Source of the DNA: Arcobacter sp. FWKO B
GTDB lineage: Bacteria > Campylobacterota > Campylobacteria > Campylobacterales > Arcobacteraceae
Assembly (NCBI RefSeq): GCF_014844135.1
Contig: NZ_CP041403.1
Coordinates: 930,001 to 994,000, forward strand
DNA: 64,000 nt
Direction: 5' to 3'
Shown: positions 3,905 through 47,356 of the stretch, piece by piece
How the letters are laid out: every line of letters begins with the position of its first letter
How positions within the stretch are numbered: position 1 is the stretch's first letter
Program-made: the position numbers and the translations under genes
The notes under the pieces: model-generated
Told to the model about the DNA's origin: nothing
Databases searched by the model: none
The model's input: the letters and a program-made list of their open reading frames with translations, nothing else

Positions 3905-4828
3905 CTATACCAAACCTAACTTTTTGAGTCTATTTTTAGCATCACCAATATATCTCACTTTTAGTCCAAATTTACCCTCAACTACTACAGCCTCACCCTC
4001 ACCAACTTTTACTCCATTTACAAGTATATCAAGTGGCTCATTTACCATCTGTTCAAGTTCTATAATCTCACCAACATCCCATCTTAAGATATCTTTTAGA
4101 AGTAGTACTTTTGTTCCAAGCCTTACACTAAGTTTTAATTTAATATCAAATAATAATTTTAGATTAGTAATAGAGTGCTCATTAAGTATTGAAGATATAT
4201 CACTATTGCCATTTGTATGTGATGCTATACCTACTGCTGTAGATTTTCCATTTTCAGATGTTTTTGTTGCTGTTGATGTATCACTTTGTGCTGGTGGTAC
4301 TTCCCCTGTTATTGAGCTTATATAAGGCTTTATTATATCATCAAAGGAGATAACTATAAATAACTCATCCCCTTCTAAATCAAGTGTAAATTTATAACTA
4401 TTTTGAAATGTTTTTAGCTCATTTGCTTCTACAATAGAAACCGTAGTAACTTCTGTTTTTACCTTACCAAGATCATCAAAACCTTGTGCATTTATAGATG
4501 TAGACATACTACCACAAACATTTGATATAATCTCTTTTATTGCATCACTTATTTCATCATCTAAATTTTCTTTTAAATCACCCATACCACCAAGCATAAG
4601 GTATTCAAACTTAACACCACTACTTGTAGGAATTATAAATGTCCAAGAAGAAGAAATATTTTGAAATTCTAATTTAGCCCCTATTAATACAGCTTGTGAT
4701 TCACTAAATTCTGAAATATCAAATTTATTTATACTCTTTATAGTCGCTTTTTTTGATAAAAGTTGTTCAATTGTATTAGAAAGCTCACTTTTTAATATAT
4801 TTGTTAAATCAGATGCCAAAGCTCCCAC
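3905..4828 (-). CDS. fliY: Flagellar motor switch protein FliY
   Basis: A 307-residue switch protein in two parts. The N-terminal part (about 1-190) resembles the CheC/FliY domain, with a DEISDAIKEIISNVCGSMSTS segment. A low-complexity Ser/Thr linker follows, and then a C-terminal FliN-type SpoA domain (about 225-305: LSVRLGTKVLLLKDILRWDVGEIIEL and later LDILVNGVKVGEGEAVV). FliY belongs to the C-ring together with FliM and FliN in this phylum. A separate short FliN is encoded at 12323-12628. Three bases separate this gene from motA. Confidence 0.88.
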   Translation of the reverse strand: MGALASDLTNILKSELSNTIEQLLSKKATIKSINKFDISEFSESQAVLIGAKLEFQNISSSWTFIIPTSSGVKFEYLMLGGMGDLKENLDDEISDAIKEIISNVCGSMSTSINAQGFDDLGKVKTEVTTVSIVEANELKTFQNSYKFTLDLEGDELFIVISFDDIIKPYISSITGEVPPAQSDTSTATKTSENGKSTAVGIASHTNGNSDISSILNEHSITNLKLLFDIKLKLSVRLGTKVLLLKDILRWDVGEIIELEQMVNEPLDILVNGVKVGEGEAVVVEGKFGLKVRYIGDAKNRLKKLGLV

Positions 4829-17336: not shown

Positions 17337-18275
17337 TTAGTTTTTATTAAACTCTGCAATTAAAGCTTCTAAATCATCACCGCCAACAAGATCAGAGTTA
17401 TTATCACCATGAATATGTTTTGCAACAGCAACTTCTTTATGACTTCCATCATCTTCAAATAAATTATTCAAATACCCAGAAAGTTTTCTAATAACTGCCA
17501 TTACTCTTTCAATCTTTTGTCTATTGATATCATGAAACTGCATAAGTTCCATAGCTTCAAAAAGTTGCATATTTTCAGCATCTACACGAGAGTTTATAAT
17601 CTTTACACTATCTTTTAAAGCTAATGCAGACTCATAATTAGCATTAAAAACACCAATATTTGGAAACTTTTTACTTAAAGCATCCATTAGAGTGATTTGT
17701 TTATCTAAAAACTGGTCAAGCTTTTTATTCTCTTGTTGGATCACATTATTTTCATCAAGTATAAAACTCAATACATCAAATATCTTTGATGCTTTTTCTT
17801 CACTATCATTTGCAACTTCACTAAGTTGATTGATAGGTTTGTGGTCTTTTGTAACAGGATAAGGAAACACTCCTTCTTCCACTTTTTTTGAAGCCCATGA
17901 ACTTGCAATCTTTTCTATTTCATCATCGCTGTTCTTTGCAGAAGGAGCACTTGTTTTTGTACTCTCTTCTTTTTTAGGCTCAGGAATAGATGCTGGAGCT
18001 GGTGTATCAGTGACACCACCAATAGAAGCAAGCATAGCTTCTATATCATCATCACTCATACTAGCACTATCATCTTCTGTTGGTGTTTCTCCACTAGCTA
18101 CTTCATTTTCAGTTGTATTATCAACCAAAGATGCTATATCATCTTGTGATAATGGGGTATCATCACTTGCTATGCTAACATCCTCTTGCTCAACACTACC
18201 TTGGCTAGATTCTTGATCATCATCTAGCTCGATGCCATTCATTAAGGCTTCTATCTCTTCTTGACTCATACTCAT
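17337..18275 (-). CDS. CheZ-like chemotaxis phosphatase with FliM-N-like motifs
   Basis: A 312-residue protein. The C-terminal half is helical and ends with MQFHDINRQKIERVM, where D249 and Q253 are spaced as the catalytic Asp and Gln of CheZ (DxxxQ). The last residues (GDDLEALIAEF) resemble the CheY-binding tail of CheZ. The acidic N-terminal region carries three copies of a motif like the CheY-binding FliM N-terminus: residues 3-13 (MSQEEIEALMN), 42-52 (LSQDDIASLVD) and 73-83 (MSDDDIEAMLA). It follows cheY directly. Dephosphorylation of CheY-P is inferred, not proven; it could also act as a phosphate sink or adapter. Confidence 0.7.
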   Translation of the reverse strand: MSMSQEEIEALMNGIELDDDQESSQGSVEQEDVSIASDDTPLSQDDIASLVDNTTENEVASGETPTEDDSASMSDDDIEAMLASIGGVTDTPAPASIPEPKKEESTKTSAPSAKNSDDEIEKIASSWASKKVEEGVFPYPVTKDHKPINQLSEVANDSEEKASKIFDVLSFILDENNVIQQENKKLDQFLDKQITLMDALSKKFPNIGVFNANYESALALKDSVKIINSRVDAENMQLFEAMELMQFHDINRQKIERVMAVIRKLSGYLNNLFEDDGSHKEVAVAKHIHGDNNSDLVGGDDLEALIAEFNKN

Positions 18276-18306: not shown

Positions 18307-18678
18307 TTACTTTTTCATTACCCCATCAAGCTTTTCTTTTAATATTTCTGCACTAAAAGGCTTAACTATATAGTTATTCACACCAGCTTTTAGAGCTGTT
18401 ACAACCTCTGCTTTACCACCTTCAGTAGTAATCATAATGATAGGTATTTTAGTGTGATTACCCTCTTTTCGTATTTTTTGAACAAGCTCCAAGCCATTCA
18501 TATTTGGCATATTCCAGTCAGTTAAAACTATATCATATTGACCTTCACTAAGTAATTTCCAAGCTTTCAGACCATCTTCTGCCTCATCAAAATCACTTTT
18601 GCTAAAGCCTAGCTGCATAACTACATTACCAATAATTCTTCTCATTGTAGAACTGTCATCAACAATTAAAATTTTCAT
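18307..18678 (-). CDS. cheY: Chemotaxis response regulator CheY
   Basis: A 123-residue single receiver domain. It shows the acidic pair D7-D8, the phosphorylation site D54 (TDWNMPNMNG), a Thr switch residue in MITTEGGK and the conserved Lys in VKPF. Phospho-CheY binds the switch and changes rotation. The ATG at 18678 is preferred to the upstream in-frame start because it gives the family start MKILIVDDSS and has AAAGG before it. It heads the long minus-strand motility operon, with a -10 box at 18718-18723. Confidence 0.93.
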   Translation of the reverse strand: MKILIVDDSSTMRRIIGNVVMQLGFSKSDFDEAEDGLKAWKLLSEGQYDIVLTDWNMPNMNGLELVQKIRKEGNHTKIPIIMITTEGGKAEVVTALKAGVNNYIVKPFSAEILKEKLDGVMKK

Positions 18679-21799: not shown

Positions 21800-22564
21800 T
21801 TAGTCCTTTAATTTTAGTATTAAATTAATCTCTTTCCCATCAGCAAGAGCATCAACAACATCTTGATTTAATCTCTCAAACAATGGTTTTAGTTCTGTTA
21901 TATTGTACTGAGATAATACAAGTTTAATTGGCTTATTTTCTTTAAATTGATACTCTTTTACTTCTTCTAGTGCTTTATCAATAATTTCAGATAAATCTAG
22001 CCAATCATCTTCATCTAGTTCATCTATTGTAGTTGCTTGTGATGTTGGTTTAGGGTCTAAAAGGCTTTTGATTTTACTTAATTCAAGGCTATCTAAAACT
22101 CCCCCATTTTTTATAGTAGGTTTTGGTATTATAGACTCATCACACTCTTGCTCAATGTCACTTGCTATATCATCAACCAAAGAGTCTAAATAATGAATTG
22201 TGTTTTCAGTTTCAAAATCTTGTATTATTCTTGCTTTATTAACTTTTTTTTCATCTTGTTGTATATTAAAAATTTGTGTTTGTAATATTGTAAATAACTG
22301 TGTAGGTAAAAATGGTCTATTTATAACAAAATCTTTTGACTTATCAAAAGACAATTCATATGCACTTATAGCACCAAGCTTTTTTGTGTATTGTTTAATA
22401 ATATTAAATCTATCATCAATAAAATCTGTATCCAAAACAATAATATCATACTTTTGTGTAATTTGAGTGTCACTTTTTACATCTAGTTTAATATCTAGTT
22501 TATTACATACTAGCGTAAAAATTTTCTCAATAATAACTTCTTTTGTAACTAACAATAAATTCAT
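21800..22564 (-). CDS. Protein with degenerate receiver-like N-terminus
   Basis: A 254-residue protein not assigned to a named family. The first 110 residues look like a receiver domain that lost key residues: NLLLVTKE replaces the acidic pair, IIVLDTDFIDD holds a candidate phospho-site Asp, and FVINRPFLPTQLFTIL sits where receivers have the conserved K-P-F. The rest is acidic with several helices, including DELDEDDWLDLSEIIDKALEE. It lies between a LolD-type ATPase gene (four-base overlap) and gmk. A phosphate-independent signalling or scaffold role is inferred. Confidence 0.6.
   Translation of the reverse strand: MNLLLVTKEVIIEKIFTLVCNKLDIKLDVKSDTQITQKYDIIVLDTDFIDDRFNIIKQYTKKLGAISAYELSFDKSKDFVINRPFLPTQLFTILQTQIFNIQQDEKKVNKARIIQDFETENTIHYLDSLVDDIASDIEQECDESIIPKPTIKNGGVLDSLELSKIKSLLDPKPTSQATTIDELDEDDWLDLSEIIDKALEEVKEYQFKENKPIKLVLSQYNITELKPLFERLNQDVVDALADGKEINLILKLKD

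Positions 22565-44470: not shown

Positions 44471-47356
<2,886 letters not shown>

What the first reader, a model, noticed from the sequence alone, without database searches (positions are those of the whole stretch)
17337..18275. CheZ-like protein with three FliM-N-like CheY-binding motifs and a CheZ-like tail
Residues 3-13, 42-52 and 73-83 all follow the LSQxEIDALL-type motif with which FliM binds phospho-CheY. The C-terminus GDDLEALIAEF resembles the CheY-binding tail of CheZ, and D249/Q253 match the catalytic DxxxQ. One protein could hold several CheY molecules and dephosphorylate them, or compete with FliM.
Basis: partly seen in the sequence, partly recalled or inferred. Interest (0 to 1): 0.6.

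Follow-up and report, generated by a model that had tools for sequence, protein, structure and literature searches.

The report
CheZ phosphatase with repeated CheY-docking motifs
This gene makes the enzyme that switches off the bacterium's flagellar-steering signal, and in this bacterial family the enzyme carries a string of short motifs resembling the motor's own signal-docking peptide, which suggests it grips several signal molecules at once; the binding itself has not been tested.

Summary
Window 17337-18275, minus strand, encodes a 312-aa CheZ of an Arcobacteraceae genome, directly downstream of its cheY. Residues 3-12, 42-51 and 73-82 match this genome's own FliM peptide LSQDEIDALL far beyond chance (0 of 5,000 shuffles); the tail 299-309 is a CheZ-type CheY-binding helix; D249/Q253 align with E. 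coli D143/Q147. Motif 1 looks ancestral: nearly all full-length CheZs fetched from other families begin MTQEEL. Specific to Arcobacteraceae is a long acidic disordered linker with 0-5 extra motifs (mean 1.9 against 0.2 in shuffles; none in 32 CheZs of other families). In close relatives motifs 2 and 3 are conserved while the linker between them is not. AlphaFold puts short helices on the motifs. Of about 30 receiver domains examined in the genome, only the adjacent CheY keeps all FliM-binding residues checked. Most likely this is a CheY-P phosphatase with several docking peptides per catalytic site. CheZ identity is near certain; docking is well supported but inferred; avidity, buffering and competition with FliM are untested. 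In H. pylori, CheZ lacking residues 1-39 keeps phosphatase function, so motif 1 is probably not needed for catalysis. New variant of a known kind.

The parts
17337..18275 (-). cheZ, 312 aa, Arcobacteraceae CheZ with motif-bearing N-terminal linker
   Evidence: (NF041271 Phos_CheZ E 6.9e-38, 130.5 bits, below its equivalog cut-off 350)
18237..18269 (-). motif 1, residues 3-13 MSQEEIEALMN, FliM-N-like; nearly invariant in the family, counterpart MTQEELDALM in other families
   Evidence: AF2 helix 5-12
18120..18152 (-). motif 2, residues 42-52 LSQDDIASLVD
   Evidence: AF2 helix 44-56
18027..18059 (-). motif 3, residues 73-83 MSDDDIEAMLA; resembles the CheZ tail of Campylobacter (MSDDDIEALINSLG) as much as FliM-N
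   Evidence: AF2 helix 75-85
17454..17840 (-). predicted long helical hairpin, residues 146-274, CheZ catalytic domain
   Evidence: pLDDT mostly above 90; profile match to E. coli CheZ 1kmi_Z, E 0.03
17517..17531 (-). catalytic DxxxQ, D249-Q253
   Evidence: invariant in 47 homologues; in register with E. coli D143/Q147
17346..17381 (-). C-terminal tail helix, residues 299-310, CheZ-type CheY-binding peptide
18307..18678 (-). cheYz, response regulator directly upstream of cheZ; keeps W58, K92, Y106, K119 equivalents
   Evidence: (adjacent in 71 of 71 loci)

Best explanation
The protein is the CheY-P phosphatase CheZ. Its helical hairpin (residues 146-274) supplies D249 and Q253 to CheYz-P. Four short amphipathic helices on flexible acidic tethers (motifs 1-3 and the C-terminal tail) dock on the alpha4-beta5-alpha5 face of CheYz, the same face that FliM's N-terminus uses. 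A CheZ dimer would then offer up to eight docking peptides for two catalytic sites, which should raise local CheYz-P concentration (avidity), help feed the active sites, and hold CheYz-P off FliM while bound. Shown here: motif presence, statistics, conservation, predicted helices, adjacency to cheYz and the intact FliM-binding face of CheYz. Inferred: binding, dimerisation (from E. coli CheZ), simultaneous occupancy, effect on switching.
For: Motifs beyond chance in this protein (0 of 5,000 shuffles) and family-wide (1.94 internal motifs per protein against 0.22 shuffled; at score 22 or more, 1.09 against 0.04; reversed sequences 34 against 136). Reference-free check: 188 sites chosen only for hydrophobic positions 6, 9 and 10 show D/E at position 7 in 82% (linker background 32%), S/T/N at position 2 in 61% (background 24%) and I/L/V/M at position 1 in 60% (ILVMF background 24%), i.e. 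the rest of the FliM-N pattern, including the acidic residue whose FliM counterpart D12 bridges CheY K119 (PMC7012829). Motif columns conserved against linker in close relatives: 13 of 20 against 6 of 78 invariant, Fisher p 2.4e-7. AF2 helices at 5-12, 44-56, 75-85 and 299-310, with most of the linker between them at pLDDT under 50. cheYz directly upstream in 71 of 71 loci. Of about 30 receiver domains examined in the genome only CheYz keeps W58, K92, Y106 and K119 together, in line with PMC9321776. Three Arcobacteraceae genomes without a CheZ match also lack FliM.
Against: H. pylori CheZ lacking residues 1-39 keeps phosphatase function and biofilm formation (PMC11237671), so motif 1 is dispensable for catalysis there. 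Motif 2 in this strain lacks the acidic residue (A48). Number and position of internal motifs vary widely between species, and 3 of 70 proteins have none at the score used. No complex could be modelled and nothing was measured.
Confidence: 0.6

Rival explanations
1. Only the C-terminal tail docks CheY-P for catalysis. The N-terminal motifs bind something else, such as a polar CheZ partner of the ChePep type or another motor or array protein, and serve localisation or regulation.
For: H. pylori CheZ lacking residues 1-39 keeps phosphatase function; its N-terminal region is described as of unknown function, and ChePep is needed for polar CheZ localisation (PMC11237671). A possible ChePep-like gene lies at window 21800-22564 next to gmk.
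Against: The motif pattern is that of FliM-N and of the CheZ tail, both CheY ligands, including the acidic residue at position 7. CheYz keeps the cognate face.
Confidence: 0.2
2. The motifs bind CheYz-P but act mainly as a buffer or FliM competitor that sets the free CheYz-P level and the motor's switching threshold, with little effect on the dephosphorylation rate.
For: Same predicted docking face as FliM; N-terminal region dispensable for phosphatase function in H. pylori.
Against: No data on relative amounts of CheZ, CheYz and FliM; not distinguishable by sequence from substrate capture.
Confidence: 0.17
3. The internal motifs are by-products of an acidic, low-complexity linker and have no function.
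For: The linker is 32% D/E and 24% S/T/N.
Against: Composition shuffles, reversed sequences and conservation against the linker all reject it.
Confidence: 0.03

Closest known systems
Helicobacter pylori CheZ (HP0170; NCBIfam NF041271 Phos_CheZ)
   Same: Same family by profile (E 6.9e-38), DxxxQ site, C-terminal tail; an N-terminal region of unknown function. Relatives from other families of the phylum fetched here begin MTQEELDALM.
   Different: Other-family CheZs have a short linker (46-79 residues) and no internal motif; the Arcobacteraceae linker is 101-257 residues with 0-5 internal motifs.
Escherichia coli CheZ (PDB 1KMI)
   Same: Helical hairpin, D143/Q147 in register with D249/Q253, C-terminal CheY-binding helix on a flexible tether (PMC1447658).
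   Different: From general knowledge the E. coli protein has no FliM-like N-terminal motif; sequence similarity is very weak (E 0.03 with a profile).
FliM N-terminal CheY-binding peptide (PDB 1F4V)
   Same: Motif pattern LSQxEIDALL.
   Different: FliM carries one copy at the motor; here the motif sits on the phosphatase, in several copies.
FliY phosphatase of Bacillus and Thermotoga
   Same: Precedent for a CheY phosphatase carrying a FliM-like N-terminal CheY-binding motif (general knowledge; EIDALL motif in FliM and FliY, PMC9126983).
   Different: FliY has CheC-like and FliN domains; this protein has neither. The FliY-like protein in this window (3905-4828) does not begin with such a motif.

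Membership tests
CheZ phosphatase | Catalytic DxxxQ in the second hairpin helix | tested here: met
   D249, Q253 invariant in 47 homologues and in register with 1kmi_Z
CheZ phosphatase | Long antiparallel helical hairpin | tested here: met
   AF2 helices 146-203 and 208-274, pLDDT mostly above 90
CheZ phosphatase | Fold match to the solved CheZ structure | tested here: inconclusive
   Foldseek and VIA-align return many unrelated long hairpins with no hit standing out
CheZ phosphatase | C-terminal CheY-binding amphipathic helix after a flexible linker | tested here: met
   sequence VGGDDLEALIAEF, conserved; helix 299-310 after a stretch with pLDDT under 50. Binding itself not testable here
CheZ phosphatase | Curated profile cut-offs | tested here: inconclusive
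   NF041271 E 6.9e-38 but 130.5 bits against cut-off 350; Pfam CheZ 17.7 against 30.7. A CheZ of another family in the phylum (L090) scores 285, also below 350, so the cut-off is narrower than the family
CheZ phosphatase | Dephosphorylates CheY-P; dimeric | not testable with these tools
   no assay and no multimer modelling available
FliM-N type CheY-binding motif | Sequence pattern hydrophobic-S-x-(D/E)-(D/E)-I-(D/E)-x-L-L | tested here: met
   motif 2 of this strain deviates at position 7 (A48)
FliM-N type CheY-binding motif | Binds activated CheY | not testable with these tools
   only inferred; CheYz keeps W58, K92, Y106 and K119
FliY/CheC/CheX phosphatases | CheC-like or FliN domain | tested here: not met
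   Pfam scan finds only weak CheZ, Spo16_C and YabA matches

The most novel reading that the evidence does not exclude
CheZ across the Campylobacterota carries an N-terminal mimic of FliM's CheY-docking peptide, and Arcobacteraceae expanded it into a variable multivalent array, so one phosphatase can bind several CheY-P and possibly form CheY-P-dependent networks that sharpen or delay motor switching. This would give a function to the N-terminal region of H. pylori CheZ.
Probability: 0.4. Interest if true: 0.65.

Novelty: new variant of a known kind. Interest (0 to 1): 0.5.

Why it matters
It would be a case of a signalling phosphatase gaining and losing copies of a short docking motif shared with the motor it competes with, so valency, cooperativity and switch threshold could be studied on nature's own series of 0 to 5 extra copies. 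It also offers a testable role for the unexplained N-terminal region of CheZ in Helicobacter and Campylobacter relatives. PMC9321776 asks which of the five Arcobacter CheYs talks to the motor and argues for CheYz; this finding ties CheZ to the same CheY.

Tried and rejected
Chance or composition as the source of the motifs: rejected by shuffles, reversed sequences and conservation. A looser pattern, [DE][ILV]xx[LIM][LIMVA], hardly separates forward from reversed linkers (139 against 112); it is nearly symmetrical for this motif, so I did not rest anything on it, but it shows that the strength of the statistics depends on the full pattern. Structure searches with the model gave only generic long helical hairpins. 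Other CheYs of the genome as the ligand: among about 30 receiver domains none but CheYz has all the FliM-binding residues checked. The two primary papers on H. pylori CheZ (Lertsethtakarn and Ottemann 2010; the later ChePep-CheZ paper) are not in the library, so an earlier remark on the FliM resemblance cannot be excluded; paper searches for CheZ with EIDALL, or FliM with 'CheY-binding motif' and phosphatase, found none.

Full report
What is there. The ORF at 17337-18275 lies on the minus strand and encodes 312 aa. The genome is an Arcobacteraceae genome of 2.24 Mb in one contig (named relatives). The neighbourhood is flagellar: fliG, basal-body rod and hook genes, flgG, a FliY-like gene, and cheY directly upstream of cheZ. 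A published comparison of Campylobacterota already names this cheY-cheZ pair (CheYz, CheZ) in the largest flagellar locus of Arcobacter (PMC9321776).

Is it CheZ? NCBIfam Phos_CheZ matches residues 97-310 at E 6.9e-38, below its equivalog cut-off; Pfam CheZ is sub-threshold. A profile of 47 homologues finds E. coli CheZ 1kmi_Z as its best PDB match at E 0.03, with D249 and Q253 in register with D143 and Q147. These residues are invariant among the homologues. AlphaFold2 predicts the long hairpin 146-203/208-274 with high confidence and a C-terminal helix 299-310 after a low-confidence stretch. Structure searches did not single out CheZ, as expected for a bare helical hairpin. I regard CheZ identity as about 0.95 certain.

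Are the motifs real? The same genome's FliM begins MAEFLSQDEIDALLDIAE. Scored against LSQDEIDALL, the CheZ sites at 3, 73 and 42 are the three best in the protein (34, 30, 29), the tail follows (21), then a weak site at 115 (18). Shuffling the linker 5,000 times never reached the first, second or third score. In 70 Arcobacteraceae CheZs the linker after residue 14 holds 1.94 motifs on average (score 18 or more) against 0.22 in shuffles; reversed linkers give 34 against 136. Because scoring against FliM selects for FliM-likeness, I also selected sites on positions 6, 9 and 10 only: positions 1, 2, 5 and 7 then still show the FliM pattern. Position 7 matters because FliM D12 forms the salt bridge to CheY K119 (PMC7012829). 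In three close relatives (70-79% identical) motifs 2 and 3 stand out as conserved islands in a linker full of gaps and substitutions: 13 of 20 motif columns invariant against 6 of 78 others. The sequences in these tallies are related, so the counts are not independent events.

Evolution. The phylum search found CheZ in 324 of 397 genomes. For the motif count I kept 32 CheZs of other families. The script kept only sequences that begin MTQEEL, so their uniform start is partly by construction; in the unfiltered list the sequences that did not begin so were two contig-edge fragments (L022, itself from an Arcobacter, and L047) and L097, a divergent extra copy without the motif. None of the 32 has an internal motif. 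The N-terminal motif therefore looks ancestral and the array specific to Arcobacteraceae. Linkers are 101-257 residues there against 46-79 elsewhere; motif number follows linker length (rho 0.71) and motifs are about 34 residues apart. Motif 3 (MSDDDIEAMLASIG) shares 10 of 14 positions with the CheZ tail of two uncultured Campylobacter (MSDDDIEALINSLG), so the internal copies may derive from tail-like sequence; this is a reading of the sequences, not a phylogeny.

Partner. cheYz lies within 150 bases upstream of cheZ in 71 of 71 loci with enough flank. Of about 30 receiver domains aligned from the genome, only CheYz has W58, K92, Y106 and K119 equivalents together; weaker receiver matches beyond the loci fetched were not aligned. 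This agrees with PMC9321776. If the motifs bind CheY, CheYz is the likely ligand.

Mechanism. Work on E. coli CheZ places catalysis on the hairpin and the main affinity on the tethered C-terminal peptide, and tethered binding has been proposed to link CheZ dimers into networks (PMC1447658). Adding three more peptides of the same type per subunit should increase valency. I infer substrate capture by avidity, with competition against FliM as a side effect. Against a catalytic role of motif 1 stands the H. pylori result that CheZ lacking residues 1-39 keeps phosphatase function, while C-terminal deletion abolishes it (PMC11237671). The array could therefore be mainly a buffer, or bind another partner; these rivals are kept.

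Verdict. The kind is known (CheZ; FliM-type docking peptide); the multi-motif form is a new variant as far as the searched library shows, with the caveat that the two key H. pylori papers could not be read.

Noticed in passing
L122:315-800 (own genome C1, about 408100-408600): A second, short CheZ-like protein (161 aa) with MTQEELDALMAGG, the core MQYQDIHRQKIERV and a tail SDEIERLIAQ, but a shortened hairpin; it lies next to a flagellin-like gene and no cheY was seen beside it. Also matched in two same-genus genomes.
   Followed up: partly
window 21800-22564 (-): Protein without a convincing family match, next to gmk; its N-terminal part matches larger ORFs in several other families of the order. 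By position and a receiver-like start it may be a ChePep relative; not established.
   Followed up: partly
L027:3001-3888: This Arcobacter MAG has near-identical tandem copies 'SIDDILAGIDGIVD' about 25-30 residues apart in the CheZ linker, which looks like recent repeat expansion.
   Followed up: no
window 3905-4828 (-): FliY-like protein that does not start with a FliM-type CheY-binding motif, unlike FliY of Bacillus or Thermotoga.
   Followed up: no
L097 and L120 (genome G327): One genome of another family has two CheZ genes, one of them without the N-terminal motif.
   Followed up: no
window 44600-45058 (+): ORF that looks like a spurious reading frame within a ribosomal RNA operon; not checked.
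   Followed up: no
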